NCBI GenBank assembly: GCA_026996855.1
Contig: JALWJZ010000103.1
Coordinates: 22,185-86,184 of the forward strand
Length of the DNA stretch: 64,000 bases
Reading direction: 5' to 3'
DNA from: Anaerolineales bacterium
GTDB taxonomy: Bacteria > Chloroflexota > Anaerolineae > Anaerolineales > DRMV01
Shown: positions 31,823-60,744 of the stretch, piece after piece
Position numbering within the stretch: the stretch's first letter is position 1
Layout of the letters: the number at the start of each line of letters is the position of its first letter
Translations under genes and position numbers: made by a program
Notes under the pieces: generated by a model
The model's input: the letters and a program-made list of their open reading frames with translations, nothing else
Database searches by the model: none
Told to the model about the DNA's origin: nothing

Positions 31823-31886
31823 CAGGCGGAGGGAGCGGGATTCGAACCCGCGGTGGGCGCGAGGCCCACAGGGGATTTCAAGTCCC
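31823..31886 (-). pseudogene. Displaced 3' fragment of tRNA-Ser(UGA); left attachment repeat of the element
   Basis: 64-bp repeat with one mismatch to 60653-60716; lacks the 5' 28 nt of the tRNA. Confidence 0.92.
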
Positions 31887-31908: not shown

Positions 31909-32742
31909 TTACCGCAAAAGAAAGCGGTTGAAACGTCTGTGAAACTCTTGCAGTTCTTGCGTTGCAAAACGCCCGTAAAAGTGGACGGTGACGTAAATCG
32001 TACTGTGTCCCATCAACTGGCTGAGCATAGCCAGGTTTCCCCCGTTTTCCAGAATTCGCCGTGCGAAGGCATGGCGGAACGCGTGCGGATTCCATCGCTT
32101 CACTCCAGCCCGTCTCCCAATATCCCGGAGTACGTGATAAATCGTCCACTTGGAGAGTACGAAGACGCGCGGGTCATCCGTCTGGGGTCGCTCGCGAAGC
32201 CAATCCTCCAAGGCCTTCCGTGTGGCTTCTCCAAAGAAGACGAAACGCGAGCGCTCCCCCTTCTCGTAGACCAATGCTCTGCCTGCATCCAGATCCAGGT
32301 TGTCCAGGGTGAGGGTGGCCACACCGTTCAGTCGCGCCCCAGTATCGGCGAAAAAGAGCACCAGTGCGCGCTCACGGGCGTTTCGGCAAGCCCGGAGCAT
32401 TTTCAGGATGTCCTCATCGGAGATGGCCTTGGGGGGTTGGTTGGGCAACGTCGGGAAAGCGATTCGCTCCATAGGGTTGCGTTCTATCAAACCTTCACGG
32501 TAGGCCCAACGGAAGAAGCGCCTCCAGGTTCGCAAGTAACCGTGGAGTGTGCTGACGGCCAGGCCGCGCTTTTGAAGTTCCTGATACCGATTCTGCAAAT
32601 CAATGTGAGTAACCTCTGACAACTCCCGTTCGAACAAAGGTTGCAAACTGCTCTGGAGCCGTTTTTTGTACCACTTCCGGGTGGCTTCCGATTGGACGGT
32701 GAGGCTTTCGAAGAAAAGCCTGAGTGCCTCCTTGACGCGCAT
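31909..32742 (-). CDS. Tyrosine recombinase/integrase
   Basis: Catalytic pattern DTGARLNG...HAFRHAFARR...LMGHS...FYGRF; immediately next to att repeat. Confidence 0.92.
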   Translation of the reverse strand: MRVKEALRLFFESLTVQSEATRKWYKKRLQSSLQPLFERELSEVTHIDLQNRYQELQKRGLAVSTLHGYLRTWRRFFRWAYREGLIERNPMERIAFPTLPNQPPKAISDEDILKMLRACRNARERALVLFFADTGARLNGVATLTLDNLDLDAGRALVYEKGERSRFVFFGEATRKALEDWLRERPQTDDPRVFVLSKWTIYHVLRDIGRRAGVKRWNPHAFRHAFARRILENGGNLAMLSQLMGHSTIYVTVHFYGRFATQELQEFHRRFNRFLLR

Positions 32743-39157: not shown

Positions 39158-39172
39158 CCCAATCTCACCTCC

Positions 39173-39352: not shown

Positions 39353-39382
39353 ATCATTACCTCCTTCAGGCGGATTTAAAGC

Positions 39383-39453: not shown

Positions 39454-39816
39454 GACCAAAGCGCCTAAAAAGAAACCCGGAAGAGCGGGAAACGGCGACC
39501 GAAACCCCTGGCCAGCCCACCACAGCATAGCACCCAACCATGCACCAATGGGCAAAACGGGATTAACCAGACTCATAGCGCTCAGGGTCAGCACATCCGC
39601 CGAACCCATCCAAGAACGAAGAAGAAGGCCCAAACCAAACCACACCACAGCCCATATCCAGGCTTCCAGTCCTCCCATAGAGAGACGAAGGGTTATGGCC
39701 CAAAACAACATCCCGGCAAGCGTCCATGCATTCACCTGCCGCGAACGCAGGTCCTGCCAGGCGGCCAGGCCCAACAAGACCAGAAACCCTACCATACCCC
39801 AGGCAGAAGCCGCCAT
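39427..39816 (-). CDS. Prepilin peptidase, A24/TadV-like
   Basis: AAWQDLRSRQVN and MGSADVLTLSAM (GxGD-like site); 129 aa. Confidence 0.8.
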   Translation of the reverse strand: MAASAWGMVGFLVLLGLAAWQDLRSRQVNAWTLAGMLFWAITLRLSMGGLEAWIWAVVWFGLGLLLRSWMGSADVLTLSAMSLVNPVLPIGAWLGAMLWWAGQGFRSPFPALPGFFLGALVLTIASMAL

Positions 39817-40379: not shown

Positions 40380-41194
40380 AGAAGGAACCCCACGAAAGGC
40401 ATGAAGTAAAAGATAGCCGCGGCCAACACCAACTGGCTGTCCAGTTTCTTGGCCCGTGCCATAACGTCTGTGCGATATTCACGAGCCATAGCGCGGGCAA
40501 TTTCCGACATGAGAAAAGCCCCCTGGGTACCCTTCCGGGCCACCATGTCCAATTGGACGGCCAGCATCAAAATTTCCGGCACACCGCGGGAAAACTTGCG
40601 GGCATAATCCAGGAACATGCCCACCGCAGGGGGACGGGAAAACAGCGGACGTCCGGTTTTCCGAGCCTGCTCGACGGCCTCAGCAATGAAACGGTGAAGC
40701 GGGCCTGAGAGTTGCGCGGCGCGTTCCAAAGCCAGGTCCGGTGATGCGCCCGCGGCCAGTTCCGCAGCCATGACAGTTGCCAATTCAGGAAGTTGACGTT
40801 TAGCCAATCGCTTCGCGCGGGAGGCCCGGTTTCGTACTTTGAGGATGGGGTAATACGTGAGAAGCAGGGGCAGAAACCAGGCCAACCCTTTTGGAATGCC
40901 AACAACCAGGAAAAGGGCCAGATACCCAAATGCCGTCATGACCGCGGCTTCCCCAAGGACGCGGTACGCCGTCACGTTTTTCAAGTACCCGGCTCGCTGC
41001 GCCCAGGTCAAATCCTCTCGGATACGCTTGAGGGAAAACGGGAAACGCTTGGCCAACCAAGCCCCAAATTGCTCCAAGGTACCCCCTTCTCTTCCGCGGT
41101 ATTCAGCCAAAATCGCGGTCGGACGGCGAGATAGTCCCAAATCCAAGGCCCAATATACGGCCAGGCCCAAAGCAAACGCTGCGAAGAAAGTCAT
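40334..41194 (-). CDS. tadC: Tad pilus platform protein TadC-like
   Basis: T2SSF-like; LPELATVMAAELAAGASPDLALERAAQ. Confidence 0.88.
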   Translation of the reverse strand: MTFFAAFALGLAVYWALDLGLSRRPTAILAEYRGREGGTLEQFGAWLAKRFPFSLKRIREDLTWAQRAGYLKNVTAYRVLGEAAVMTAFGYLALFLVVGIPKGLAWFLPLLLTYYPILKVRNRASRAKRLAKRQLPELATVMAAELAAGASPDLALERAAQLSGPLHRFIAEAVEQARKTGRPLFSRPPAVGMFLDYARKFSRGVPEILMLAVQLDMVARKGTQGAFLMSEIARAMAREYRTDVMARAKKLDSQLVLAAAIFYFMPFVGFLLWVLGAPVFSMFASP

Positions 41195-42111
41195 AGGCTC
41201 ACCTCCCGAATGAGGCCCTGGATATAGAAATAGCCCACCACCCCCCAGACCACGAGAAGCACCAAAAGTACCTGATTGAACGGCTGGTAAAACAGGGCTT
41301 TGGTCTGGGGGTTGGACATGATGACAACAAGACCGGTACCCAAGGCCAACAAAATCACTCGGATAGTACCCCATGCACCGGCCGCCGCGGCCATGGCCTC
41401 GGCGCGGGCGTCCAGGATGTGGGTGAGGTTCTCGGCCACCATGTTGAAAGCCTCTACATAACCCACGCCGCCGGTTTCCCACACGCGCTTCAATTCCCGA
41501 AGGAACAGCACCAGAGTTGGCGAAAGCATTTCGGCTTCCTGGATGGCTTGTTGAAAAGCGCGGCCGGGTTCCCGGTGAAGCCGATGGACGAAGGTCTGCA
41601 TCCACTTCCTCAGCGGGCTGTTCTGCTCCATGCTTTCGAGCACTTCATCCAGGGCTTGCAAAAGATTGGGGGTGATGGGAAGGGTGGCAGCCAGGCGGGT
41701 CAGCACCAAAGGGAGTTCCTTTTCCATGCGCTGACGAAAGTCCTTCCACTTGGTCTCTACCCAGGTGCGCACCAGGAAATAAGATGCTACAGGGGATGCA
41801 AGGACAAAGACAGGTGGTAGAAACACCGCGGCCAGACTGCCCACCACGACGGTGGAAGCCAGAACACCAAACCAAAAGGCCCTGTTTTCCCAACCTTTGA
41901 CGTCCAGGCCCAGGGATTGGAAAGCCAGGCGAATGGGCAACGCCCGGTCAACAATCAACGTTTTTTGGTCGTCACGGCTTCGCATGTATTGCCGCAAGGT
42001 AGTCTGCACCCGGTGGCTATTCCAAAGGGATAGTCCCAAATCCAAAGCCCAGTAAACAGCCAGGCCCAAAGCAAACGCCACTATGATGGGTATAACCAAA
42101 TCCATCATCAT
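41191..42111 (-). CDS. tadB: Tad pilus platform protein TadB-like
   Basis: T2SSF-like; ELPLVLTRLAATLPITPNLLQALDEVLE. Confidence 0.88.
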   Translation of the reverse strand: MMMDLVIPIIVAFALGLAVYWALDLGLSLWNSHRVQTTLRQYMRSRDDQKTLIVDRALPIRLAFQSLGLDVKGWENRAFWFGVLASTVVVGSLAAVFLPPVFVLASPVASYFLVRTWVETKWKDFRQRMEKELPLVLTRLAATLPITPNLLQALDEVLESMEQNSPLRKWMQTFVHRLHREPGRAFQQAIQEAEMLSPTLVLFLRELKRVWETGGVGYVEAFNMVAENLTHILDARAEAMAAAAGAWGTIRVILLALGTGLVVIMSNPQTKALFYQPFNQVLLVLLVVWGVVGYFYIQGLIREVSL

Positions 42112-43334
42112 CGCCGCTCCCTGGTGAGGGGTTCCATGGAAGTGTCGCCGTAACGGTACACCTGGCGGAACTTCACATCTCCGCCTTTGAAACCTGCAAC
42201 TTCGTGAACGGCCAGCACCCGCCGTTTGCCGTCCGCCCAACCCACGGTGACCACCACATCTATGGCCTGCTCGAAGATGGCTTTGGCGGCCTCCATACGC
42301 ACCTGGGCGTCGGCGAACATGATGACGGCCAGACGAAACACCGCGTGCTGGGGACTTTCCGCGTGGAACGTAGACAGACCGGGGTGGTCGGACATCTGGG
42401 CGCGGAACAGGGCCAGGGCTGCATCGCCCGTGCGCACCTCACCCACGATGAGCCATTGCGGTGCCATGCGCATAGCATCGTCCACGCCGTCCTTCAGGGT
42501 GTACGGCGGTACCTGGCTTCCGGGCATGGAAGACCGGGCTTCGAGCGTGACCACATTGGGATGCCGGAGCCAGATTTCTTCAGGGTCCTCAATCTTCACC
42601 ACGCGTGCATCGGCCGGGATGCCCCCGTTGGCCAGGGCACTGAGGAAAGTGGTCTTGCCCGTGGCCGTGCCACCAATGACCAAAACCCGCAGTTTTCGCC
42701 CGACCGCGGCGCATAAAGCGTCCATGACAAAATCCGGGGCCATTTCCCAGGCAATGATGTCCTGGGGCAGGATGGGTCGGGCTTCAAACAAACGAATGTT
42801 AATGGCGGGGTACCCTTCCCCTGGGGCCAACACAGGATGCACGATTTTTACACGTGCGCCCCCCGTTCCATGGAACCGAGGCAAACGAGCGTTTACTGAA
42901 GGATTGGCTTCGTTCAAAGCCCGCCCCGTAGGGGCCAACAGGGCTTCCACAGCGCGCCAGGCTTCTTCTACTGTGGGGCGATAATCCCACGGCTCGAAAT
43001 GCTCAGCCCCTTTTCGCAACAACCACACCGAGCCATCAGGGTTCAAAGCAATCTCGGTCAGGTCGTTTCGAGAAGGAGGCAATAGCGCACCAAGAAAACC
43101 CATCCCGCCCACTTGAGCGGCTGCTCGGCGCGCCATATCTTCCACCAACACCGGCCCCGCGGTTAGACCCTTTTCTGCAAGGAGGCGGTGCACTTCTTGG
43201 CGGGCCTCTTTCAAGAGGGCTTCTGTATCCCGAACCACGGCAAGGGGTAGCCGTCCTAACCGTTCCACAGCTTCCCGAACGATGTTGTCCTGGTGCTCTG
43301 TGGTTAGCGTTTGGGCAAATTGCGTCCAGGTCAT
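42108..43334 (-). CDS. tadA: Tad secretion ATPase (CpaF/TadA)
   Basis: VIGGTATGKTTFLSALA; PQWLIVGEVRTGDAALALFRAQMSDHPGLSTFHAES. Confidence 0.94.
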   Translation of the reverse strand: MTWTQFAQTLTTEHQDNIVREAVERLGRLPLAVVRDTEALLKEARQEVHRLLAEKGLTAGPVLVEDMARRAAAQVGGMGFLGALLPPSRNDLTEIALNPDGSVWLLRKGAEHFEPWDYRPTVEEAWRAVEALLAPTGRALNEANPSVNARLPRFHGTGGARVKIVHPVLAPGEGYPAINIRLFEARPILPQDIIAWEMAPDFVMDALCAAVGRKLRVLVIGGTATGKTTFLSALANGGIPADARVVKIEDPEEIWLRHPNVVTLEARSSMPGSQVPPYTLKDGVDDAMRMAPQWLIVGEVRTGDAALALFRAQMSDHPGLSTFHAESPQHAVFRLAVIMFADAQVRMEAAKAIFEQAIDVVVTVGWADGKRRVLAVHEVAGFKGGDVKFRQVYRYGDTSMEPLTRERR

Positions 43335-43353
43335 GACTCCCTCGCTTCCGGTC

Positions 43354-44616
43354 TCACGTTCGCACCTTTACCCGCACCGGTCCCATCCGATACTCCTGGG
43401 CTGCGTTGGATGCGGCTGCGACCGCGGGCATGGGCGGAACCAATGCATTGACAAGTCCCTGAATAGCCTTTCGAAACTCCCCCACACCCAGTGGGGACTG
43501 ACGTCGGTCCTGGGCCACGGCCACCGCGGACAGGAAAGGAATGGTCGCGGCCAAAGGCGGGAAAGTGGCCCCCGACACGTCCCGCAGCATCTCTGTTGCG
43601 GCCCGGTGCCATTCTTTGGGCGCGATGCGTCCGCCCACCATGTTCAGGGCCACCAAGATGTGATTCGCGGGCAGGCGGTGCTCGCCGGACACGCGTTCGG
43701 TGACCGTGCGGTAGGCTTCCACAGTGCTCAGGATGTCGGCCAGAGAAGGTCTGGCTACCAACACCAAATGAGTGGCCGCAGTGATGGCTTGGGCCGCGAT
43801 ATTCGCGTTAGGGGTGTCCAGGACGAGCAGGGCATACCCTGCCCTGGCCGCGGTGCTCACCAACGCAGACAGCGAAGCCGGGTTTTCGGTAGGCAATGCG
43901 GAAAAGCGGGCCTCGGTGAGTACATCCGGGAACCCCCCTAACACGGCCAGGCCGTTCAGCATTTGCAAACTTTCCTGCAACCCTTCTACCGAGGGATTGG
44001 CCATCCAGGATGTGATATTGGGTTCAGGCTTCAAGCCCAGAACCAGGGGGTTGGTGTCCGGGGTATCCAGGCCCACCAACATGGTGGGCACGCCGCGAGT
44101 TGCGGCTTCCAGGGCCACTGCCGCGGCCAATGTGCTTTTCCCCGTACCGCCTGCATGATTCCAGAACATCACCACGCGAAAACCCACCACCAACGCGGGG
44201 CCAGATGGGGCCGCTTGCGGCGAAACCTCTGCCCCACCCCATCCCCCTGTGGTTGTCATGACTGCGGCGGCCACAATGCGGTCGGGAAGTTTGTGCAGGT
44301 CTTCGAAATCCCCTATATGCACCTCCCGCACCCTGGGCATCTGGGCAAAGGCCTGACGCATCTCCGCGGCCTGGGGCGGCAGGACCAGAAAGACCTCCGC
44401 CTGTACGGCCTGCAGGAACCGCTGCAGGGGGTCCGGCCCACCGAAGAGGGTGGCATCCAGGACCAAGGCCTGGGGGTTGTAGGCCATCTTGGATTGCAGG
44501 TCTTCGACGCTCAGGGCCACCGAGACCACATGGAGCCGGTCGTCGTCGCTGAGCACCGGCCCCCATACGTTGAGGCGAGGCATGGGAGCGGCAATCAAAA
44601 CCGTGACCTTGGTCAT
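43354..44616 (-). CDS. TadZ/CpaE-like MinD/ParA-type ATPase
   Basis: FWNHAGGTGKSTLAAAVALEAA; N-terminal receiver-like domain. Confidence 0.85.
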   Translation of the reverse strand: MTKVTVLIAAPMPRLNVWGPVLSDDDRLHVVSVALSVEDLQSKMAYNPQALVLDATLFGGPDPLQRFLQAVQAEVFLVLPPQAAEMRQAFAQMPRVREVHIGDFEDLHKLPDRIVAAAVMTTTGGWGGAEVSPQAAPSGPALVVGFRVVMFWNHAGGTGKSTLAAAVALEAATRGVPTMLVGLDTPDTNPLVLGLKPEPNITSWMANPSVEGLQESLQMLNGLAVLGGFPDVLTEARFSALPTENPASLSALVSTAARAGYALLVLDTPNANIAAQAITAATHLVLVARPSLADILSTVEAYRTVTERVSGEHRLPANHILVALNMVGGRIAPKEWHRAATEMLRDVSGATFPPLAATIPFLSAVAVAQDRRQSPLGVGEFRKAIQGLVNALVPPMPAVAAASNAAQEYRMGPVRVKVRT

Positions 44617-45461
44617 TTGCTTTCCTCCGCTTGCTCGGATGGTTGCGGAAACACCACCATAGCGGGCACGAAGAAGCCCGAAGTCCGAATGCTGACCTCA
44701 GCATTCGGGGGAACCAAAAAGAGGCTCAAGCGCGCGCCATCCGACATTTGCAAAGCAGCCAGCAATTCCACGGGGTTCACAGGCATGGTGACGTTTTCCG
44801 CTCCGAACGTTTGAAACTCGTACACCACATTCACCGGCTCTGCAGGTACGGCCACCACCACTGCCCCCTCTTTAGATTTCATGGAGCCAATACTCCCCAA
44901 AAGGGGGTCCTCACTGCCCGTTTCTTGCAAAGCCTGGAACTCCGGCGATACGTATAGCACCCGCAACCCTTCAATGACCACCTTAGCGTAATCCCCTGAG
45001 ACCAGGGGCGTTTGCGCTTCCCCTGCTTCTTCCACAGGGAAACGGGCCAGGATGGCCTGGACAAAAGTCTGGTCGTCAATAAGAGCGACCACGCCCACCT
45101 TGTCACCGGGCTTGAGCACACCCGCGACGCCGGAGGCATCGTCCACCTGGATGGCCATCGCACGCTCGTCGGGATTGAGGTCGAACTGCCATGGTCCCAG
45201 ATGGGCCTGACGAATCACATCCCCCGCGCTCCGTGGTACGGCCAGGGTCTGGCCCAAGACGCTCTCGATGGATGTCAATGCGTCTTCAGGGGCCAGGTTT
45301 TCGGGCATGGCTTGCAGGGTCACGTCTCCTTCCGAGATGACCTGACCGGGGGCCAGGTCGCGAGCGGCGACCACAACTTGAACGGTTTGAGTCTGTGAAA
45401 GCAAGTACACCACCGCGGCCACCAACAGAGCGATGCCAATGCGCAGCGCTTTACTCAACAT
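44613..45461 (-). CDS. cpaB: Flp pilus assembly protein CpaB/RcpC (SAF domain)
   Basis: VVVAARDLAPGQVISEGDVTLQAMPENLAPEDALTSIESVLGQTLAVPRSAGDVI. Confidence 0.92.
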   Translation of the reverse strand: MLSKALRIGIALLVAAVVYLLSQTQTVQVVVAARDLAPGQVISEGDVTLQAMPENLAPEDALTSIESVLGQTLAVPRSAGDVIRQAHLGPWQFDLNPDERAMAIQVDDASGVAGVLKPGDKVGVVALIDDQTFVQAILARFPVEEAGEAQTPLVSGDYAKVVIEGLRVLYVSPEFQALQETGSEDPLLGSIGSMKSKEGAVVVAVPAEPVNVVYEFQTFGAENVTMPVNPVELLAALQMSDGARLSLFLVPPNAEVSIRTSGFFVPAMVVFPQPSEQAEESK

Positions 45462-45639
45462 GGCTTTTCTCCTTCTTCACGGTCTGTTTGGCAATCAACA
45501 AAAGCGTCAAGGCTTCTTCCAGGGATTTCCAATCCACGTCCAGCACATGCTGGTTTTGGTCCACCACCACAACCAGGGCCCGGTTGCCTTGCAGTAAACG
45601 CTTCACGGTCTCTTCCAGAACTCGTTTCACATCGTTCAT
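45451..45639 (-). CDS. Small hypothetical protein in tad operon
   Basis: 62 aa; overlaps neighbours by a few nt. Confidence 0.6.
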   Translation of the reverse strand: MNDVKRVLEETVKRLLQGNRALVVVVDQNQHVLDVDWKSLEEALTLLLIAKQTVKKEKSHVE

Positions 45640-45905
45640 GGCGCCACCTCGTTTGCACTGGTTGCCGTCATCGTGGGGCCGGGTGTCACGGTTGGCGTGT
45701 ACACCCAATGTGGAGGCGGAGTGACCCCCTGCCACCATCCCGAAAGGGTGGGTGTGGGTGTGGCCGTGGAGGGCACGGTCACCATCCATGCCGTAGGCGT
45801 TGGGGTTCTCCCGCCATTTCCACTCCAGGACAGACCTCCCAGGGCCATAAGCATGGCCAGCAGAAAAACCAACAGCACCAGGAACCCCATGACGCTTTGC
45901 TTCAT
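45636..45905 (-). CDS. Small membrane-anchored Pro/Thr-rich protein
   Basis: MKQSVMGFLVLLVFLLAMLMALGG then Pro/Thr-rich tail; ATGA overlaps on both sides. Confidence 0.65.
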   Translation of the reverse strand: MKQSVMGFLVLLVFLLAMLMALGGLSWSGNGGRTPTPTAWMVTVPSTATPTPTLSGWWQGVTPPPHWVYTPTVTPGPTMTATSANEVAP

Positions 45906-48900
45906 ATCCGTATCCTCCCCAGTCGCGCAGCGATTTCCGTGTCGTCTGGCTCCGGTACGTCCAGCATCAAGGGTTTGAAAAGCACGGGGCGCTGATAAGC
46001 CCGGTCGAAGGTGTATGGGAAGCGACCAATTTGCAGGCCAATGGGCATATCGGTGAGGAAGCGCCGCCATTCCTCATCGCGGAAACCTTTCTCCGAGAAA
46101 CCCAGGGCGGCCAGCACGATGTCCTTGTCCCTGGGGTTCTTGAGGAAGGCGATGCACAGGTTGTTGCAGGAACTGATGATGTCCTGGGGAATGAGGGAAG
46201 GGGCCTGGGTGATGACGTGCAAACGCACGCCGTACTTCCGCGCATCCCGGAACATGTCTCCGAAACGCTGGGCCGCAGAGATGCCCTCCTCGGCCTCTTC
46301 AAAGGACGCGGCCCCAAAAATCTTGTTGGCCTCTTCGAAGAAAATTTGCAACAACGGCTCATCGGGACCGGCCAGGTGGCGCACCCGGCGGGTCATCATG
46401 TCCATGTAGAGGTGCCAGCCCAACCATCCCAGCAGGAAAGCCTTACCGAAGTCGTCCAGGAAGGAGCCGCCTTCCACAATGAGGATGCCCCAGGGCCGGG
46501 CCATTTCCTCCACGGGCACCACGTCCGGCCCCGGCTCGAACATCCGGGACGCCGCTCCCTGAACCAGGGGGTTGAGCCGGTACAGAATGCCCTCCAGCAC
46601 CCCCTGAAGCATGGTGTCCCGCGGAGGCACGGTAGTCAGTTTTTCCTGGACCTGACGGTACAGGTCAGCCAGGCCCACCTTGCTACTTCGATGCACCGCG
46701 ATGGCTTGCTTTTGTTCCCAGGTGAGGTCGCTCAGGGGTGTTCCCGCGGAAACACCCACCAGGTCGGCCTCGTCGGGCTGCACCCTGCCCCATTTGGGGT
46801 CGGTGCGGATTTCGGGGTCGTCCACCAGAACCCCGGCCCGCAGGTACACTTGTCGCAACGCGTCCAGAAGTTCCTGTTTCTGTCGGCGCACGCCCAGGCG
46901 GGCGATGGAACCAAAGATGTCCGCAAAGGCTCGCCACTGGGTTTCGGGGTCAATGTTGCGACCGATTTGGAGGGGGTTCCAGCGCAGGGGCCGGGGAGCA
47001 TCGGGCCAGAGTTGACGAATGTCCACGTGCCCTTCCAGGCCGGGCGCGTTGAGAAGCGCCCGCCAGCCCGCGCCGAAGTCCAGCACCACGGTGCGGGTGC
47101 GCCATTTGAGCGTGGTCTCATAGGCCATGCGGATGGCCGATACCGATTTCCCCCACCCCGTGTCCCCTGCAAACAGGGTATGGAAAAGCCGCCGTTGGTC
47201 CAGGCGCACAGGCGCGGTGGTGAGTTCGTGGGTAGTGGGCGAAACCTGGTGCCCCAGCACCACATCGCCGGGCATGTCGGGATAGAACCCCATGCCCTCC
47301 GGGATGGGTGCCATGACGGTCACCGTGGACCCTTCTTCGATGAGCGCGGGTGCGGTATATGCGGCCACCTGGCCCGCGGTGAGTAGGGTCGTGTACTTGG
47401 TCCAGAGTTTTCCACCAAAGGGGTCGTTCTCCGCAGGTCCATGCCAGGGCAGAAAAGCCAGGGCGTGATAGCGCAGGGGTTCCACGTCCTGGGGTTCTGG
47501 ATGCACGGTAAGCACGGGTGTGGGCACGTTCGGCCCATGGAAGGCCTGGGGAACTAGGCTTTCCACCGCGGCTGCGGCCTCTTCGTCGTCCACCCATATC
47601 AGGGCCTCGGTCATAAAGCCGCCCTCCGCGCTGGCCTGGTTGAGGATACCCTCCAGTCCCCGCAGGATTTCCGTGAGGCGCATGGCCACGTCGTCTTCGG
47701 TTTGCCAGGAACGCCCAATGCTGACGCCGGGCACCAGGCCCGCGCTCAGGCCCGAAACCCATCCGTATCCACCGGCATGGCCTGCCGCGTTGGACACGCC
47801 TTTGCTCTCTGCATGGGACAGCCCCCACCCCTCACTTTTCGTATCCGCTTGCGACCAGGTGTCGGATTGGCTTCTTGTGGTGGACCAGAACCGGGACACG
47901 GACACGGATTTCCCTTTCGTATGTGCGTGGCTGTGGGTGACACTGGTTGTATCCGCCGTCCCCCAGGTTTCTGACCGTCCCGTGGTATGCGCGGTGCCAT
48001 GGGTCACCGTGGTACTGGAAAAGGTGCCCGATGTTGTCGTCACTCCCCACGTACTCGCACCGCCCACAGAAGCGCTCACCGTATCGGAGGTGGAAGTGGT
48101 ATTGGCATCACTTTGCATGGTACTGATGGAGCCCGACAACGATGCACTCCGTGACGCGCTCTGGGTACCGGACCAGCCGACTTCTCCAGACACATTGGCG
48201 TTCCATCCACCATTCACGCCTGCCCCTAACGTTCCAGGTACACCCAGGCTCACGTTGCCTCCGGCATGATAACCTGCACTCCCCCCTACACTGGCGCTTT
48301 GTGTAAAGGATTGTCCCACCGTGAGGCTTTGGCCTACGGTTATGCCTTGGGTGGTGCCGGAAGTATGCGTTTTGGCCGTCCCCGTTGTATGGGCACCACC
48401 TATGGACCAGCTCGAAGAGCCTCCTGCGCTATGACCCACAGAGCCACTTGTTCCCTCAGTATGGCTGACGGAAGTGCTGTGGGTCGTGCTTTCAAAGGTG
48501 CCCACGGAATGGCTCACCGTATGTGCCCGTCCGTGCGCCACGCCTGTGGTGTCTGCTGAACTGTGGGTAACGGTCACGCTTCCACCAGTCGTATGGGCCA
48601 CGCCCTCTGTGTGGGCATAGCCCTCAGTATGGGCCTGGCCCCACTGCCGGGATACCCCGTCCGTGTGGGCCACACTTTCCGCACGTCCTGCCATGCCCGA
48701 GTGGGAAAGGGTGCGACCCAGGGCGGCCATGATGGGCACGCCCAGGGAAAAGCCGATACTGAGGGCCCCTCGCTGCCGCGAGGCCACGATGGACGCCAGT
48801 TGCGCCACTTCTACCAGGGTTTTGGACAGATAACGCCGGGGCAGGGCCTCGGCCACGGTCTGAAACACGAAGTTCTTGCGCAACTTGGCCAGGCCCCGGA

Positions 48901-49453
48901 AAAGGATTTCGTTCTGTTCCGCGGCCAGGTCATCGGGTGTGGGATTGGGTAGAGAACCGTCTTCTCCGTACAACCCCCGCCGGGTCTCCCGCGGATCCGG
49001 GAAACCCAGCAGCACCAGGGGACGGCGTGCGGACATGATGAACCGAAGATACCACTCCAGGTACTCCGTCTCCGGAGGCACCGTTCGAGACTGGGGGTAG
49101 TTTGCCAGGGTCGCCAACACCGCGGCCAGCTGTTCCCGGGCTCGAGCGATGGCTTCATCCTTCGTGTCCGCGGTGGCCGCGGCGCCGTAGAACTGCACGA
49201 TGCCCACGTAACGAGGCCGAAACATGCCCATGGCGCTGTATACGAAGTTCACCCCCGCGTTGTACATGCCCCGGATGGCGGCCCACTGCTTTCCCAGAAG
49301 GTCGTAGTCTTCCTTGGCGGCGATGGGGATGGCGTGAAGCCGATGCAGGGCTACTGCCCTGTACAACGTTCGTCCTTCGGGAGTGGCGATGTGGAACCAC
49401 AGCGCGCCCACTTCACCGCCGTTGTCATGTACACCTGAAGCCAGAATACACAT
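45902..49453 (-). CDS. VirB4/TraC/HerA-like ATPase with ~330-aa Ser/Thr/Gly/His-rich insert
   Basis: Walker A FAGDTGWGKSVSA; Walker B-like LLQIFFEEANKIFG; low-complexity insert about aa 251-582. Confidence 0.88.
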   Translation of the reverse strand: MCILASGVHDNGGEVGALWFHIATPEGRTLYRAVALHRLHAIPIAAKEDYDLLGKQWAAIRGMYNAGVNFVYSAMGMFRPRYVGIVQFYGAAATADTKDEAIARAREQLAAVLATLANYPQSRTVPPETEYLEWYLRFIMSARRPLVLLGFPDPRETRRGLYGEDGSLPNPTPDDLAAEQNEILFRGLAKLRKNFVFQTVAEALPRRYLSKTLVEVAQLASIVASRQRGALSIGFSLGVPIMAALGRTLSHSGMAGRAESVAHTDGVSRQWGQAHTEGYAHTEGVAHTTGGSVTVTHSSADTTGVAHGRAHTVSHSVGTFESTTHSTSVSHTEGTSGSVGHSAGGSSSWSIGGAHTTGTAKTHTSGTTQGITVGQSLTVGQSFTQSASVGGSAGYHAGGNVSLGVPGTLGAGVNGGWNANVSGEVGWSGTQSASRSASLSGSISTMQSDANTTSTSDTVSASVGGASTWGVTTTSGTFSSTTVTHGTAHTTGRSETWGTADTTSVTHSHAHTKGKSVSVSRFWSTTRSQSDTWSQADTKSEGWGLSHAESKGVSNAAGHAGGYGWVSGLSAGLVPGVSIGRSWQTEDDVAMRLTEILRGLEGILNQASAEGGFMTEALIWVDDEEAAAAVESLVPQAFHGPNVPTPVLTVHPEPQDVEPLRYHALAFLPWHGPAENDPFGGKLWTKYTTLLTAGQVAAYTAPALIEEGSTVTVMAPIPEGMGFYPDMPGDVVLGHQVSPTTHELTTAPVRLDQRRLFHTLFAGDTGWGKSVSAIRMAYETTLKWRTRTVVLDFGAGWRALLNAPGLEGHVDIRQLWPDAPRPLRWNPLQIGRNIDPETQWRAFADIFGSIARLGVRRQKQELLDALRQVYLRAGVLVDDPEIRTDPKWGRVQPDEADLVGVSAGTPLSDLTWEQKQAIAVHRSSKVGLADLYRQVQEKLTTVPPRDTMLQGVLEGILYRLNPLVQGAASRMFEPGPDVVPVEEMARPWGILIVEGGSFLDDFGKAFLLGWLGWHLYMDMMTRRVRHLAGPDEPLLQIFFEEANKIFGAASFEEAEEGISAAQRFGDMFRDARKYGVRLHVITQAPSLIPQDIISSCNNLCIAFLKNPRDKDIVLAALGFSEKGFRDEEWRRFLTDMPIGLQIGRFPYTFDRAYQRPVLFKPLMLDVPEPDDTEIAARLGRIRI

Positions 49454-49472
49454 TACTGTTTCCTCCTCTTTT

Positions 49473-49535
49473 GGCCAATAGGCCTTAACACCCCTTAAGC
49501 CCGGCCTATAGGCCCTGCAGGAAGGCCTATAGGCC
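49473..49535. repeat. Three GGCC(T/A)ATAGGCC palindromes upstream of the ATPase gene
   Basis: 49473-49484 GGCCAATAGGCC; 49503-49514 and 49524-49535 GGCCTATAGGCC. Confidence 0.85.
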
Positions 49536-50081
49536 CTTTCCGCGCGTGCGCACCTGGGCGATGAGGTCCTCCGGTGTTTGCGGCAACGGTGGATGGGCAA
49601 ACAGGGCCTGGGCCAGCATAGCGAAGAAACCCACGGGGTATGCGTACAGAGCAATGGCGGCCAGGGCTTCCAGGTACGATGCCCCGCCAGCGAGCCAATC
49701 CTGTCCGGTGCGAGCCAGGACCGAGCGGTAGAGCATCACACCCAGGGCAATAAGTACGTACAGGGCCAGGCCCTGGGTGATGCGCCAGTACAGGGCCTGG
49801 GGGTTGAACCGTTCCAAACGCCAGGCCAGCCATCCCCCCAGGGCCATGGCCCCCATCATCAGGCCCACCACCGTAGGAGCAAACACGGCTGTAATCAACA
49901 TGACGGCCAATACCCCGGCCATCCAGCGTCGCCGAAGCGTGTCCTGCTGTTGTAGCAACAAAGGTGCGGCCGCGGCCAGGAGCAACCACAGCCGCCAGGC
50001 CTCCAGCACCGCATACACCACAGCCAAAAAACCGTTGAGCACCCAAAGGCCGGGAAGCCACCAGGGATTTGGCATGGTCAT
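49527..50081 (-). CDS. Polytopic membrane protein, hypothetical
   Basis: ~5-6 TM helices; ATGA overlap with upstream gene. Confidence 0.7.
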   Translation of the reverse strand: MTMPNPWWLPGLWVLNGFLAVVYAVLEAWRLWLLLAAAAPLLLQQQDTLRRRWMAGVLAVMLITAVFAPTVVGLMMGAMALGGWLAWRLERFNPQALYWRITQGLALYVLIALGVMLYRSVLARTGQDWLAGGASYLEALAAIALYAYPVGFFAMLAQALFAHPPLPQTPEDLIAQVRTRGKGL

Positions 50082-51208: not shown

Positions 51209-51553
51209 TTAGGCCCGCCCATCGCCCGCAGGCCGGTAGGCCGAGGACGACAAAGGCACGGGCTCCCCAAAGAAACTGACATGACGCACCGCTACATAGG
51301 TGCTGGGATTTTCCCCCTGCCATAGGGTAACCAGCCTGCCATAGAGCACTACCTGAATCCGACATGGGCCATAGGCTTCAAAATAGGCTCGTGCCAATTC
51401 CGCACCCCGTCCCATCAGCACCACAGGATGCCGCCCACCCAGATAAGGTTTGCCCGTATCCACATGGGTGCGGAGCGCCAGGCGTCCGTCCACCCTCTCG
51501 AAAACATTGCGAATCTCAAGCCAGCCTTGCAGCACCACCACGTTGTTGCTCAT
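51209..51553 (-). CDS. Single-stranded DNA-binding-like OB-fold protein
   Basis: MSNNVVVLQGWLEIRNVFERVDGRLALRTHVDTGKP...VVLYGRLVTLW. Confidence 0.6.
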   Translation of the reverse strand: MSNNVVVLQGWLEIRNVFERVDGRLALRTHVDTGKPYLGGRHPVVLMGRGAELARAYFEAYGPCRIQVVLYGRLVTLWQGENPSTYVAVRHVSFFGEPVPLSSSAYRPAGDGRA

Positions 51554-52443
51554 AGCGCCACCTCTTCCACGGCCCGGGCCAGGTCCTGGGCCGAGGGTTC
51601 CACGTACCGCCGGGTCGTGTCCAGGCTCTTGTGGCCCAGGATACGAGCCACTTTTTCCAGCGAAACCCCGGCATCCACCAGGGACTTGGCAAATGTGTGC
51701 CGAAGCACGTGAGGGGTGGCTTCTACACCCGCTTCCCGAGCCACGCGAGCCACGGCCCGTTGAACCGTGCGCACGGTCAGACCATCCCGGACCGCCCATA
51801 CTTGATCGCCTTCGATGTCAGCATCACGTCGGGTTGTCTTCCATCGGCGTAACGCATCCCGCGCGGCTTTGTTCAGGGGCACCACCCGCTGCTTGTCCCC
51901 TTTGCCCCGTACCAACAGGTGACCCTTGCGCTCGCCGAGCACGACGTCGGACCACCGCAGGCGAACCACTTCGCCAGCGCGCAAGCCCGTGTTCAGCAGG
52001 AACAGGGTGAGCAGGGCGTCCCGCTCGTACACCACCCACCGAACCGGATACCGCAGCCGGGCCACTTGCAAAATCCGCTCCGCAGCCCGCCGCAGGGCAT
52101 ACCGCTCTCGCTTGTCCAGCCATCGAAGGCCGGGCGGTTGCTCCCGGAGCCCAGGTACCCGTCGCGCGGGGTTTTCGGAAATCCGACCCTGATGCCTGGC
52201 CCAGTCCAGCCAGGCACGTACCGCGGCCAGACGACGGTTCACCGTCGCTGCCCGCAGACCTCGACGCTGAAGCCAATTGCGATATTCCCGCACATCGGAC
52301 GGTGTGACCCTCTCAGGTTCCAGAGTCTCACCGTTGGTATGCTCGAACCAAACGGCAAACTGCTGCAAGTCCCGCACGTAGCCTCCCACAGTCACCGGAC
52401 TGGCCTGGGCGCTGAGATGCCGGGCAAAGTCTTCAAAAGCCAT
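51550..52443 (-). CDS. XerC/D-like tyrosine recombinase
   Basis: LLNTGLRAGEVVRLRW; HVLRHTFAKSLVDAGVSLEKVARILGHKSLDTTRRYV. Confidence 0.93.
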   Translation of the reverse strand: MAFEDFARHLSAQASPVTVGGYVRDLQQFAVWFEHTNGETLEPERVTPSDVREYRNWLQRRGLRAATVNRRLAAVRAWLDWARHQGRISENPARRVPGLREQPPGLRWLDKRERYALRRAAERILQVARLRYPVRWVVYERDALLTLFLLNTGLRAGEVVRLRWSDVVLGERKGHLLVRGKGDKQRVVPLNKAARDALRRWKTTRRDADIEGDQVWAVRDGLTVRTVQRAVARVAREAGVEATPHVLRHTFAKSLVDAGVSLEKVARILGHKSLDTTRRYVEPSAQDLARAVEEVAL

Positions 52444-52470: not shown

Positions 52471-53505
52471 TCATTGCACGTAAAGCGCCGCATACGGCGA
52501 TTCTGTGTACTTACGCTCACGCAGGGCTTGCGAGGCCGTCCATGCCTCGCTTTCGTCAGGCACCAGCCCCTGGGCCACCAGGGGCTGAAGTTTTTCGCCC
52601 AATACCCCCCACCAGCGCACCAGGTCATAGTGCTCATCCTTCGCCCGCACTTTCCCACGGGCCAGGTTCACCGCTGCGGCCACTGCGGGCTTTGCCAACT
52701 GACCCTCTTGCGCTTCCCGGAAGCACCGCGTGAACTCGGCCAGCACGTCCAGGCCCGTGACGCGGCCCTCGGTCAGGGCTTGCAGCACGGGTTCCCGAAG
52801 TTTTCGACTCGGAACCCCAGCCGCCCGGAGAAACGCGTCCCAGGCTTTGCGCTCGGCTTTGCCAGGAGGCTTTTCCAGGCGAGAAAAATCAAACTCAAAA
52901 TCCTGTGTGTCTCCCCCTCCGTCGCCGAAGGCGGCGAAGCCGCCGAAGGCGACCTCCCTCTCCCTCTCCCCCACACCCCCTCTCCCTCTGGTCTGGTCTA
53001 TATCTGTATCTGGTCTTAATCTGTTCTTCTTCTTATTCTTAAGGCGTGACACTTCTGGGACACCCCTGTGACCATTGCGTGACGCCAGCGTGACATTAGC
53101 GTGACTATCGCGTGACTTTGGCGTGACATTACCGTGACTTTCAACTTCTTCGTCTTCTCCCTTCTCCTCTTCCCGTTCACGCTCGCGCTGACGCCGCTTG
53201 CGTTCGGCCACCTGGGCGCGAGTCACGCGCGCCTGTTCATCCTCATACCGAGCCACCAAAATGCCCTCCTCCCCCACTTCCACAATGCCCGCCTGTACCA
53301 GGGTGTTCAAATGTGATTCAAATTCGTTTTGGGGAAGGCGCAGCATCCAGGCTACTTGCTCTCGCGTGCCTGGTATGAGTCCCCCTTGCTCATACCGAGC
53401 CGCCAGGGCGTAAAGTTTGAAATAAACAGCCTGAACCTCCAACGGCAACATCCCCAGTTGGGGGTCGTCCAGGGCCGAATCAACGTGCATTTTGAACCAT
53501 TTCAT
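52471..53505 (-). CDS. Phage/plasmid replisome-organizer (DnaD-like) replication protein
   Basis: MKWFKMHVDSALDDPQLGMLPLEVQAVYFKLYALAARYEQGGLIPGTREQVAWMLRLP, charged linker, C-terminal domain. Confidence 0.65.
   Translation of the reverse strand: MKWFKMHVDSALDDPQLGMLPLEVQAVYFKLYALAARYEQGGLIPGTREQVAWMLRLPQNEFESHLNTLVQAGIVEVGEEGILVARYEDEQARVTRAQVAERKRRQREREREEEKGEDEEVESHGNVTPKSRDSHANVTLASRNGHRGVPEVSRLKNKKKNRLRPDTDIDQTRGRGGVGEREREVAFGGFAAFGDGGGDTQDFEFDFSRLEKPPGKAERKAWDAFLRAAGVPSRKLREPVLQALTEGRVTGLDVLAEFTRCFREAQEGQLAKPAVAAAVNLARGKVRAKDEHYDLVRWWGVLGEKLQPLVAQGLVPDESEAWTASQALRERKYTESPYAALYVQ
53046..53138. repeat. Iteron-like array: GTGAC every 11 bp within the replication gene
   Basis: GTGAC at 53046, 53068, 53079, 53090, 53101, 53112, 53123, 53134; degenerate GGGAC at 53057. 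Confidence 0.92.
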
Positions 53506-53638
53506 GATTTCCTCCTAACAGTATGATGATTTCCTCAGCGGCCCTCTGAGCGACGGTTTTCCCAAAAAGTCCTGTGATACCTGGAGCGTTTTTTCCTTCG
53601 CTCAGAGGCTTTCCTGTGAGTTTGTCCTATGCGGCAGG

Positions 53639-53700
53639 CTAAGCGTCCACTAAGCGGCGGCTAAGCGTCCACTAAGCGGTGCCGCTTAGGTGCCGCTTAG
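53639..53700. repeat. 11-bp-period CTAAGCG/CGCTTAG array, putative centromere (parS-like)
   Basis: CTAAGCG at 53639, 53650, 53661, 53672; CGCTTAG at 53683, 53694. Confidence 0.92.
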
Positions 53701-54360
53701 GTTGGAAGAAGAACCTCCGATTTTCCAGGAATTGCTCAAGTTCACCTCCACCTGGGTTTCCTGAGTGATGGCCACAACCCGTGGCCGCAGGGTCCAAATA
53801 CCTTTGCGAACTCGTTCCAAGGCCTCCTCCAGCAACGTCACGACCACTTCGCCTATGCGAGCGTTGCCTGCCAACGTGACAATCCGTTGGTGCATCTCCT
53901 TCGACCACCGATAGGCCAGAACCAACGTGATTTTTCGACTCCGCCCTTTAGGCCTGGGAATGTCTCGCTTCCATCCCGGTTCGCGAACGACTTCCACGGT
54001 CATCCTGCGTGCCTTCGGGTTGGAATTGGGCTGTACCTGCAGCTCAATCTCGCCATCCCGAACGGCATCCAAAGCGGCCGACATCAAAGCCTCTGCCACC
54101 TGGTCCGTAGTGGTCATGTAAGCCTCTGCCAGGCCACGAATGGACTCCCGAACGGCCTTTGCGCGGGTCACCAGGTCCTGACCTGAAACCCAGTACGTGT
54201 AGGACTTGTGCCGCCGCTCCCACTCCCGCCGTCGCTTCTTGGGCTTCGCCCGCGGAATCAGGTCCAGGGGCGAGGGCGGGGTGCCCGGAGCATCCGCCGA
54301 CGGCGAATGGCGGTCGGCAGACGGCAATGTCAGGTTCTCGAAGGGGTCACGTCGCGGCAT
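53686..54360 (-). CDS. Putative partition/centromere-binding partner of ParA
   Basis: 224 aa, helical, in the ParA operon and ending in the CTAAGCG array. Confidence 0.45.
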   Translation of the reverse strand: MPRRDPFENLTLPSADRHSPSADAPGTPPSPLDLIPRAKPKKRRREWERRHKSYTYWVSGQDLVTRAKAVRESIRGLAEAYMTTTDQVAEALMSAALDAVRDGEIELQVQPNSNPKARRMTVEVVREPGWKRDIPRPKGRSRKITLVLAYRWSKEMHQRIVTLAGNARIGEVVVTLLEEALERVRKGIWTLRPRVVAITQETQVEVNLSNSWKIGGSSSNLSGT

Positions 54361-54625
54361 GGCTTTCCTCCCAGGGTGGGGTGACTTCGCCCTGGTAGAT
54401 GGGGCAGTCCACGGGAACGCCGCCCAGATACCCATCATCCAGGGCATCGTCCGAAGCGATTTCCGCTTCCCACTCGTCACGGGTGGCCATGCATACAGGG
54501 CGAGGTTCCAACCCTGCTTCTTCCAGGTCTCCGGCCAAGGCTTCTACTTCCCAGAAGTGTCCCTGGGCATCCCGAACCAGGTAAGCCCGGAAAGCGCATT
54601 CCAAACCACATTCCAGCACCTTCAT
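54347..54625 (-). CDS. Small Cys-containing hypothetical protein (CxLECxFRxYL family, paralog A)
   Basis: CGLECAFRAYLVRD...DCPIYQG. Confidence 0.65.
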   Translation of the reverse strand: MKVLECGLECAFRAYLVRDAQGHFWEVEALAGDLEEAGLEPRPVCMATRDEWEAEIASDDALDDGYLGGVPVDCPIYQGEVTPPWEESHAAT

Positions 54626-54645: not shown

Positions 54646-55479
54646 TCACAAGTGCTTCATCACAGCATCCACCAGGGCTTGGTACTCCCGCGCGGCCCGG
54701 TGGGTGGGGGCATACTCGAAGACCGTTTTTCCCTCCGCCGCGCACTCCCGCAGCACGGTGCTCCGGTGAATGGGCGGGAGCACCGCGTCCCCGAAGTGCT
54801 GGCGCAGCAGGCTCAGGTTGTGCCGACTCTCCCGGGTGCGTTCGTCGTAGAAGGTGGGCAGCACCCCCAGCAGGCGGCCCGACCATCCTCTTTCCGACAG
54901 CGAAGCCAGGGCGGCCACCATCTTGCTCACGCCGTCCAGGGCCAGGAAGTCCACGGCCGCGGGGATGACGACCAGGTCAGCAGCGAACACGGCCCGTTCC
55001 TGAATGCCGCCCACCGAGGGCGCGGTGTCCAGGACCAGCACGTCGTATCGGGCCACTTCGTAGTGAGTGAGCGTTTCGCAGCTATAGCTGACATCCCCGC
55101 TGACGTACACCTCGCTTCTGCTTGAATGGCTTGACACGAAGGCCGTTTTCAACGCCCGGACAATGGCATCCAGGGGGCGGTTCTCCGCGGACAGCACGAT
55201 CTGGGCCGTGCTGGTGGTGGGGTCGCCGGGGAGGACGTCCAGGTTCTCTCGACCGGTCATGCGCACCCATTGCACCGCCAGGGCCGGATCGGGCAGGGTG
55301 AGCAAGTAGAACGCGCCCGGCTCAGGCCGCATCCCTAAAGACACGGCCACATGACCCTGGGGGTCGAAGTCCACCAGCAGTACCTTCAAGCCTTTCATTG
55401 CCAGGCCGTGGGCAAGATGCACCGCGGTGGTGGTCTTGCCCACACCGCCTTTTTGGTTGGCGACCGTAACGACGTTCAT
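54646..55479 (-). CDS. parA: ParA-family partition ATPase
   Basis: VTVANQKGGVGKTTTAVHLAHGLAMKGLKVLLVDFDPQG. Confidence 0.95.
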   Translation of the reverse strand: MNVVTVANQKGGVGKTTTAVHLAHGLAMKGLKVLLVDFDPQGHVAVSLGMRPEPGAFYLLTLPDPALAVQWVRMTGRENLDVLPGDPTTSTAQIVLSAENRPLDAIVRALKTAFVSSHSSRSEVYVSGDVSYSCETLTHYEVARYDVLVLDTAPSVGGIQERAVFAADLVVIPAAVDFLALDGVSKMVAALASLSERGWSGRLLGVLPTFYDERTRESRHNLSLLRQHFGDAVLPPIHRSTVLRECAAEGKTVFEYAPTHRAAREYQALVDAVMKHL

Positions 55480-55769
55480 GCCAATCCTCTCCTTTTCGCC
55501 CAGGATGGTGGGGGAACGATGGGCAGCCACAACTGCCCCGGAATGTAGCGGGCTTGCAGGCTCAGATGACATTTTTGGCAAAGGGCCACCAGGTTCTCGA
55601 AGGTGCAGTTGGAAGGATTGCCGTCCAGGTGGTGGACGGTCAGGGTATGGCCGCTCTGTGGGTCGTGAGGATGGCCACAATGCTCACAGCGCCATCCCGC
55701 CCGCTCTTTGACACGGGCGGCGATGGTTTCCCAGTCTTCCGGATACCGCGAGCGTGTCCAAGGCATCAT
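55476..55769 (-). CDS. HNH endonuclease
   Basis: CEHCGHPHDPQSGHTLTVHHLDGNPSNCTFENLVALCQKCH. Confidence 0.9.
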   Translation of the reverse strand: MMPWTRSRYPEDWETIAARVKERAGWRCEHCGHPHDPQSGHTLTVHHLDGNPSNCTFENLVALCQKCHLSLQARYIPGQLWLPIVPPPSWAKRRGLA

Positions 55770-60027: not shown

Positions 60028-60597
60028 TCACTGGTGCCGTAACTTTGAAAGGGAAGGATGTTTCAGCAATTTGGGGCGTCCCTCTTCATCTAAAAGAGGA
60101 ATTCCTGAACGCACCCCAAACCGCTTACGTAAATGATGAATGCTGGCTAAGTAGGCCACATCTGCTTCATTTACAATTTTTCGACTTCCGCGTCCTTTAC
60201 CTTCATCCAAAACGCGGACCAGGCCGCGCTTTGCCCAAACATGCACAGTTTGAGGCAACAGACTATATTTTCGGGCCGCCTCACTTATGGAAATCCCCAC
60301 CCCTTCCAAATCTTTGAAGGCAACCCGTTCAATTTGGGCCAGGCGGCGGTTCAACTCGAACACATCCCCTTCGTGCTCGTGTTCGCCGTTGCCTGTGGCC
60401 TGGTTTTCCAGGCCGTTTTGTCTCTGGCCGTTTTCCAGCATGACCACCTGTCCGTCCTGTACGGCTACCAGGATGCCTCCTTCGGGGGAAATGCCTGCCA
60501 TAACCTTACCCGATTCAGCCCATTGGCGCAGAGTGTCTTCGGGAAGTCCCGTTCGTCGGGCGGCTTCGGGAAGAGGAACCAAAAGCGGCATAGGCAT
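60028..60597 (-). CDS. Putative DNA-binding regulator with two MerR/HTH_17-like helices
   Basis: LPEAARRTGLPEDTLRQWAESGKV and ISEAARKYSLLPQTVHVWAKRGLV. Confidence 0.7.
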   Translation of the reverse strand: MPMPLLVPLPEAARRTGLPEDTLRQWAESGKVMAGISPEGGILVAVQDGQVVMLENGQRQNGLENQATGNGEHEHEGDVFELNRRLAQIERVAFKDLEGVGISISEAARKYSLLPQTVHVWAKRGLVRVLDEGKGRGSRKIVNEADVAYLASIHHLRKRFGVRSGIPLLDEEGRPKLLKHPSLSKLRHQ

Positions 60598-60656
60598 CGC
60601 TCACCTCCGTCGGTGCGGGGGAACCGGGGATGGTCCCCGGCCCCCGCTGGTTCAGG

Positions 60657-60744
60657 CGGAGGGAGCGGGATTCGAACCCGCGGTGGGCCCGAGGCCCACA
60701 GGGGATTTCAAGTCCCCCGCCTTCGTCCACTCGGCCATCCCTCC
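60657..60744 (-). tRNA. tRNA-Ser(UGA)
   Basis: GGAGGGATGGCCGAGTGGACGAAGGCGGGGGACTTGAAATCCCC, long variable arm, GCGGGTTCGAATCCCGCTCCCTCCG. Confidence 0.95.

What the first reader, a model, noticed from the sequence alone, without database searches (positions are those of the whole stretch)
53046..53138. Exact 11-bp-period GTGAC iterons inside the replication gene
Seen: GTGAC at 53046, 53068, 53079, 53090, 53101, 53112, 53123 and 53134 (seven consecutive at exactly 11 bp; the missing 53057 slot reads GGGAC). In protein this gives an 11-aa quasi-repeat (SHGNVTPKSRD/SHANVTLASRN/GHRGVPEVSRL) because 3x11 bp = 11 codons. Knowledge: lambdoid O-type origins sit within the initiator gene as iterons. 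Inference: this is the element's origin.
Basis: partly seen in the sequence, partly recalled or inferred. Interest (0 to 1): 0.88.

Follow-up and report, generated by a model that had tools for sequence, protein, structure and literature searches.

The report
Likely replication origin inside initiator gene
A mobile DNA element carries, in the middle of the gene for its replication-starting protein, a row of short DNA repeats spaced one helix turn apart that is kept for its DNA rather than for the protein it encodes, and is very probably the element's own replication origin, an arrangement already known from a few phages and plasmids.

Summary
GTGAC (coding strand GTCAC) occurs at eight of nine slots 11 bp apart at 53046-53138, the longest fixed-period 5-mer run in the window. 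DNA, not peptide, is kept: no synonymous shuffle reproduces the run (0 of 2000). A prophage paralogue in the same genome keeps the cores (44 of 45 bases) while spacers drift (20 of 54). In the whole genome the pattern occurs only in these two genes. The gene encodes a winged-helix DNA-binding domain, a disordered linker where the array lies, and a separate C-terminal part. Beside the array lies an AT-rich tract of 5-6-bp steps. A sister element keeps the C-terminal part and both flanking genes but has another N-terminal domain and other repeats, the reciprocal of the paralogue: domain and repeats travel together. Best reading: an initiator-gene-embedded origin, as in lambda O, SPP1 gene 38 and pSK41 rep. 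Binding and replication were not tested. The protein is not a lambda O homologue; it is closer to DnaD/replisome-organiser initiators. Similar arrays occur in many phage initiator genes. Known kind, with a short-core, one-turn-phased variant that I did not find described.

The parts
52471..53505 (-). Initiator (rep) gene, 344 aa
   Evidence: ORF; phrog_2447 replication initiation protein 1.7e-10; Phage_rep_org_N 22.8 bits against cut-off 23.3, 25.4 bits in the genome search
53146..53505 (-). Codes for N-terminal winged-helix domain, aa 1-120
   Evidence: AlphaFold model, block-mean pLDDT 87-98 for residues 11-120; best VIA rows 4pql, 5kbj, 4pt7
53046..53138 (-). Iteron array: nine slots of GTCAC(G) on the coding strand at exact 11-bp steps, slot 53057 degenerate (GTCCC); lies in the linker-coding part (about aa 123-153)
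52970..53045 (-). AT-rich tract directly 3' of the array on the coding strand, AGA recurring mostly every 5-6 bp; candidate unwinding/loading element
   Evidence: GC 0.38-0.40 at 52980-53059; AGA steps 6,3,3,5,6,5,6,6,5,5,6; fixed-lag test p = 0.0498
52471..52860 (-). Codes for C-terminal part, aa 216-344; no Pfam match; relative found only in the sister element of G001
   Evidence: 2 of 18 genomes of the family, own included
51550..52443 (-). Xer/integrase-type tyrosine recombinase next to rep
   Evidence: PF00589 118 bits; 64% identical over 300 columns to the gene next to rep in the sister element
53626..53700 (.). Second array: CTATGC at about 53627, CTAAGC at 53639/53650/53661/53672 and inverted GCTTAG at 53684/53695, mostly 11-bp steps; probable partition site or operator, not the origin
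   Evidence: counterpart in the sister element, L459 757-830
53686..54480 (-). Possible partner of ParA / centromere-binding protein (no confident family or fold)
   Evidence: position; 70% identical relative in G001; model pLDDT 40.7
54646..55680 (-). ParA-type ATPase
   Evidence: AAA_31 1.1e-30, CbiA 1.5e-21
31823..31886 (.). Far attachment-site copy: 64-bp repeat of the tRNA-Ser 3' part
   Evidence: 98% over 64 bp
60653..60716 (.). Near attachment-site copy, within tRNA-Ser (60655-60744, -)
31909..32742 (-). Element integrase beside the far att copy
   Evidence: PF00589 94.4 bits

Best explanation
The array is the initiator-binding part of a replication origin embedded in the initiator gene of a roughly 28.8-kb tRNA-Ser-integrated element. 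The winged-helix N-terminal domain of the protein binds the GTCAC(G) cores, one per helical turn, so that copies line up on one face of the DNA; the adjacent AT-rich 5-6-bp tract melts; the C-terminal part recruits or loads the host replicative helicase. The protein segment encoded by the array is a disordered linker that tolerates whatever the DNA dictates. Shown: the array, its phasing, its conservation as DNA, the predicted domain layout, the tract and its GC dip, and the joint exchange of N-terminal domain and repeats. Inferred: binding, melting, helicase recruitment and replication.
For: (1) Given the peptide, the chance of the core bases is 10^-8.1 here and 10^-10.0 in the paralogue; the array uses rare codons TCA, AGT and GTC. 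(2) Paralogue in a prophage of the same genome (terminase, portal, endolysin, DnaC-like loader): nine GTCAC at exact 11 bp at the same place; cores 44/45, spacers 20/54, N-terminal-domain DNA 195/300, third codon positions 18/37. (3) Of 10 overlapping matches to four GTCAC at 11 bp in the genome, all lie in these two genes; the reversed control gave 0. (4) Sister element in G001: neighbours kept (70%; 64%), C-terminal part 43% over 74 columns, no N-terminal similarity, and different repeats, CCGACGCACA; paralogue: N-terminal domain plus array kept (53% over 152 columns), C-terminal part different. (5) Pattern-first IMG/VR scan: 106 stretches; 56 of 108 arrays non-tandem, giving 39 distinct ORFs of 100 aa or more, all 39 with GTCAC on the coding strand; 33 of 39 arrays start at 20-70% of the ORF; the most frequent PHROG matches are replication initiation families. 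(6) GC is below the gene mean 3' of the array in 25 of 31 and 35 of 40 deduplicated initiators, significant on the 3' but not the 5' side. (7) Confident winged helix followed by a low-confidence linker. (8) Published precedents.
Against: No binding or replication data. In the window itself the 5-6-bp tract is only marginal (p = 0.0498). The C-terminal part matches no Pfam family, so helicase recruitment is unsupported here. Foldseek gave no match at E<=0.001, and RepA_N is tied in Z with CRP-type winged helices. Of the 22 loci read (two of them the window gene and the paralogue), only some have an array above the codon null. My short-repeat detector finds nothing significant in lambda O or TP901-1 rep, so it does not cover all embedded origins. 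No consensus DnaA box (TTWTNCACA) in the window.
Confidence: 0.85

Rival explanations
1. The repeat is kept for the peptide: an 11-aa repeat in a linker with a protein-level role, the DNA phasing being a by-product.
For: 3 x 11 bp does give an 11-aa quasi-repeat, and H, V, T, S and R recur at those places in many relatives.
Against: Synonymous nulls fail (0 of 2000). Relatives with 10-bp or mixed 10/11-bp spacing keep GTCAC although the peptide period changes. The region is low-confidence, probably disordered, in the model.
Confidence: 0.04
2. The array is bound by the initiator for another purpose only (self-repression or copy-number handcuffing), with the true origin elsewhere.
For: Iterons often have both roles (established knowledge, recalled); no replication assay here.
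Against: Position far inside the gene, the adjacent AT-rich tract, and the same layout in known origins.
Confidence: 0.08
3. The array is a partition site for the neighbouring ParA system rather than an origin.
For: ParA and a possible partner lie next to rep, and partition sites may be phased repeats (recalled).
Against: A separate 11-bp array lies next to the possible ParA partner, at the same place in the sister element, while the sister lacks the GTCAC array (one GTCAC in its rep gene). The prophage paralogue has the GTCAC array beside a DnaC-like loader; no ParA match among the ten neighbours scanned.
Confidence: 0.03

Closest known systems
pSK41 RepA_N plasmid initiator and origin (PMC5703833: passages, section 14)
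   Same: N-terminal winged-helix domain binds boxes placed centrally in the rep gene; the linker they encode is dispensable; the pPR9 chimera replaces N-terminal domain and origin while keeping the C-terminal domain; best VIA rows for the model are 4pql, 5kbj and 4pt7 (that these are RepA_N proteins is partly from their titles and partly recalled)
   Different: Four Rep boxes against nine short slots at 11 bp; no RepA_N Pfam match at E<=1; C-terminal part without Pfam match
SPP1 oriL within gene 38 (PMC6316719, passages)
   Same: Direct repeats plus AT-rich unwinding element inside the replisome-organiser gene
   Different: Sequence comparison with gp38 not done: accession X97918 not held
Lambda O and ori-lambda (record J02459; PMC7466680, passages)
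   Same: Iterons and an AT-rich tract in the middle of the initiator gene
   Different: Four 18-bp iterons at 20-24-bp steps against a 5-6-bp core every 11 bp; no O-family match
DnaD-like phage initiators of IMG/VR and their named relatives such as in Aeromonas phage pAEv1818, Pseudomonas phage Marin and Escherichia phage Tritos (tblastn of L116)
   Same: The L116 relatives fetched from IMG/VR carry GTCAC repeats at 10/11 bp in the linker and an AGATAA tract; the named records were not inspected for repeats
   Different: Different N-terminal subfamily; the window N-terminal domain has no tblastn match in phage or plasmid records

Membership tests
Initiator-gene-embedded iteron origin (lambda O / SPP1 / pSK41 type) | Repeats lie inside the initiator gene between DNA-binding and C-terminal parts | tested here: met
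Initiator-gene-embedded iteron origin (lambda O / SPP1 / pSK41 type) | AT-rich tract adjacent to the repeats | tested here: met
   GC 0.38-0.40 beside the array; melting itself not tested
Initiator-gene-embedded iteron origin (lambda O / SPP1 / pSK41 type) | Initiator binds the repeats | not testable with these tools
   indirect only: N-terminal domain and repeats are exchanged together
Initiator-gene-embedded iteron origin (lambda O / SPP1 / pSK41 type) | Fragment supports replication | not testable with these tools
   no assay
Lambda O family | Sequence match to O-like families | tested here: not met
   15 PHROG families at E<=5, none O-like
Phage_rep_org_N (PF09681) | Score over the Pfam cut-off | tested here: inconclusive
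   22.8 against 23.3 bits; 25.4 bits, over the cut-off, in the genome search
RepA_N plasmid initiators | RepA_N Pfam match in the N-terminal domain | tested here: not met
   not among matches at E<=1
RepA_N plasmid initiators | N-terminal fold | tested here: inconclusive
   4pql Z 9.1, 85 aligned, rmsd 3.0; Vfr (CRP family) 7few Z 8.7, 68 aligned, rmsd 2.3, is a tie
DnaD-type helicase loaders | C-terminal DnaB_2 domain (PF07261) | tested here: not met
   no match in window aa 200-344; the prophage paralogue has it, 37.7 bits against 22

The most novel reading that the evidence does not exclude
A large class of phage and mobile-element initiators shares a two-part origin written into the linker codons of their own gene: very short cores (often GTCAC, sometimes other 5-mers) every helical turn, then a tract of 5-7-bp steps that positions melted single strands for helicase loading, comparable in logic to DnaA boxes plus DnaA-trios or the DnaD recognition element. 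DNA-binding domain and repeats move as one cassette between helicase-recruiting C-terminal parts (DnaD-like, DnaA domain I-like, others), so such origins could be found by sequence alone.
Probability: 0.35. Interest if true: 0.7.

Novelty: new variant of a known kind. Interest (0 to 1): 0.5.

Why it matters
It gives a concrete, testable origin for an integrative element for which I found no description, and a synonymous-recoding test that separates DNA function from protein function cleanly. If the wider pattern holds, origins and cognate binding domains of many uncultured phages could be read directly from initiator genes, and the modular swap would explain how related elements escape incompatibility (inference; the pPR9/pSK41 case is described that way in PMC5703833, section read).

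Tried and rejected
Led nowhere: the search for related loci with the window protein in viral contigs gave no relative; N-terminal tblastn in phages and plasmids gave none, nor did L402 in phages. PDB sequence search gave only weak regulator hits. Foldseek gave no match at E<=0.001. A model of the possible ParA partner was too poor to use (pLDDT 40.7). The Pfam search in the phylum found few relatives (5 of 400).

CACTG at 11 bp gave 39 stretches, 27 of 41 arrays tandem, and five ORFs of 100 aa or more, all with CAGTG on the coding strand; three of the five match replication initiation families and one a terminase small subunit. So one-turn arrays in initiators are not confined to GTCAC, and the claim is not that GTCAC is unique.

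Rows dropped before counts: tandem arrays with mean spacer identity over 0.75 (52 of 108 in the 11-bp set; 21 of 125 in the 10-bp set); ORFs under 100 aa or absent (12 and 13 arrays); duplicates; also ORFs under 150 aa and arrays within 150 bp of an ORF end. The short-tract test used 70 deduplicated initiators: 42 with p<0.01 on the 3' side against 5, 3 and 2 of 70 for the 5' side, N-terminal and C-terminal stretches; by dominant lag, 16 of 31 in the 11-bp set and 10 of 39 in the 10-bp set were not significant.

Rejected: peptide selection; recent slippage (spacers differ); a whole-window GTGAC excess. The novelty statement rests on eight paper searches of an open-access library only. Papers: passages seen of PMC5703833 (plus section 14), PMC6669507 (it concerns a phage with iterons for a partition system, not used), PMC10201434, PMC6316719 and PMC7466680; all others only as search listings.

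Full report
What is there. Nine slots at exact 11-bp steps carry GTCAC or a near copy, mostly followed by G; eight are intact and one reads GTCCC. Among all 5-mers with at least three different bases and all periods of 7-30 bp, it is the longest exact chain in the 64-kb window (seven), while 15 order-1 surrogates reach at most three.

DNA or peptide? Since 11 is not a multiple of three, the core meets all three reading frames in turn and yields the peptide quasi-repeat. Synonymous codon shuffles, either permuting the gene's own codons or drawing from usage in 12 long ORFs of the window, never reproduce the run (0 of 2000 each). Conditional on the peptide, the core bases have probability about 10^-8. 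The DNA is what is kept.

Paralogue. The same genome has a second gene (L002) whose product is 53% identical over an alignment of 152 columns from residue 1. It carries nine GTCAC at 11 bp in the same place. In register, 44 of 45 core bases agree but only 20 of 54 spacer bases. Its neighbours are a Sak4-like protein, a DnaC-like loader, endolysin, terminase, portal and head proteins, so it belongs to a prophage. Its C-terminal domain is DnaB_2, the DnaD type (the DnaD link is recalled). A scan of the whole genome for four GTCAC at 11 bp finds only these two genes, and the reversed control finds none.

Sister element. Genome G001 of the same genus has a contig in which the ParA-partner gene (70% identity) and the recombinase gene (64%) flank a rep gene. 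Its C-terminal part matches the window's (43% over 74 columns), while its N-terminal domain shows no similarity and its linker carries CCGACGCACA repeats, three at 12 bp plus inverted copies, instead of GTCAC. My fixed-period detector does not find that array significant (best 3, null up to 4); the repeats are seen directly in the sequence. Two further relatives (L461 in G016, L462 in G007) have yet other N-terminal sequences and linker repeats. N-terminal domain and repeats thus appear as one cassette, as expected if the domain binds the repeats.

Wider occurrence. A pattern-first scan of IMG/VR gave 106 stretches. Of 108 arrays, 52 were tandem duplications; the other 56 gave 39 distinct ORFs of 100 aa or more, all with GTCAC on the coding strand. 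The most frequent PHROG matches among the 41 rows of A1 (these 39 plus the window and L002) are replication initiation families. By phmmer with the window and L002 N-terminal domains, 18 ORFs of this set and 16 of the 10-bp set match at E<1e-3, and none in the CACTG and genome contigs sets. In a protein-led set of 15 relatives of one phage initiator (L116; two of the 15 are identical to it), 14 keep three to five GTCAC at steps of 10, 11 or 20 bp in the linker, with a GATAAA-type tract after it; the one at 49% identity, L437, has mainly GTGAC motifs instead and keeps a GATACA tract. One of the six peptide patterns used to find them lies in the tract, which favours that feature.

Homologues in the host's phylum (not named by the tools). 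Profile A4 matches in 20 of 400 genomes. Of the 22 loci read, besides the window gene and the paralogue, L401 has AACGA at 11 bp (0 of 200 shuffles), L404 GTAAC at 10 bp (0 of 200, but within the N-terminal part), L423 GTCGC at 11 bp (2 of 200), L415 TGCCA at 12 bp (2 of 200) and L409 GTAAC at 12 bp (7 of 200). Most of the weakest matches show nothing and may not be initiators.

The neighbouring tract. GC falls to 0.38-0.40 at 52980-53059 (a similar dip, 0.38, lies at the gene's start). In deduplicated initiators the 60 bp 3' of the array is AT-richer than the gene in 25 of 31 (11-bp set) and 35 of 40 (10-bp set), with no significant effect on the 5' side. This stretch also shows 5-7-bp periodicity in 42 of 70 at p<0.01, against 5, 3 and 2 of 70 in control stretches. 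For the window the fixed-lag test is marginal (0.0498) because AGA steps alternate between 5 and 6. This resembles in logic the single-strand elements described at the B. subtilis origin (PMC10201434, passages); whether the initiator reads it is untested.

Protein. AlphaFold gives a confident winged helix up to residue 120, low confidence from about 129 to 205 and an uncertain helical C-terminal part. VIA-align ranks RepA_N domains 4pql, 5kbj and 4pt7 first (Z 8.9-9.1, 85 residues), tied with CRP-family domains that align over fewer residues.

Element. A 64-bp part of tRNA-Ser (60653-60716) is repeated at 31823-31886 with 98% identity, next to an integrase (31909-32742). The element would be about 28.8 kb, with rep, ParA, a second recombinase and Tad/Flp-type genes.

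Known relatives. Published descriptions match the layout: pSK41 rep (PMC5703833, section 14), SPP1 gene 38 (PMC6316719, passages) and lambda-type O genes (PMC7466680, passages). The kind is therefore known. What I did not find in eight searches of an open-access library is the short-core, one-turn-phased form coupled to a 5-6-bp tract.

Limits. No binding, melting or replication was tested; helicase recruitment by this particular C-terminal part is unsupported; the generality estimate rests on pattern-selected examples.

Noticed in passing
window 53626-53700; L459 757-830: Second 11-bp array next to the possible ParA-partner gene, CTAAGC with inverted GCTTAG; the sister element has CTATGC/GCATAG at the same place. 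Probable partition site.
   Followed up: partly
L003 rep product aa 406-459; L461 and L462 rep C-terminal parts: Initiators of two related elements end in a DnaA N-terminal-domain match (PF11638, 33.7 and 27.5 bits against 24.6); L462 has a weak DciA match (17.2 against 24). The window's own rep has no such match.
   Followed up: partly
window 31823-60716: Element bounded by a 64-bp tRNA-Ser repeat, with an integrase at one end and a MerR/HTH-type gene (60028-60597) at the other.
   Followed up: partly
window 38328-49654: Tad/Flp-pilus-like genes on the element (TadE/G-like, prepilin peptidase, two T2SSF, T2SSE ATPase, a CbiA/ParA-type ATPase, RcpC; several below Pfam cut-offs) and a 1250-aa ORF with a weak HerA_C match and a Ser/Thr/His-rich repetitive middle.
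   Followed up: no
L435, L436, L438-L446, L448: Initiator genes of this phage group carry another GTCAC set (10, 10, 11 bp) roughly 200-240 bp upstream, inside the N-terminal-domain codons.
   Followed up: no
L232, L237, L240, L252, L258: Scrambled control motif found CAGTG arrays at 11 bp on the coding strand; three of the five proteins match replication initiation families and one a terminase small subunit.
   Followed up: partly
window 33415-34290: Protein with two ExoX-like C-terminal stretches and a weak SWIM zinc finger match on the element.
   Followed up: no
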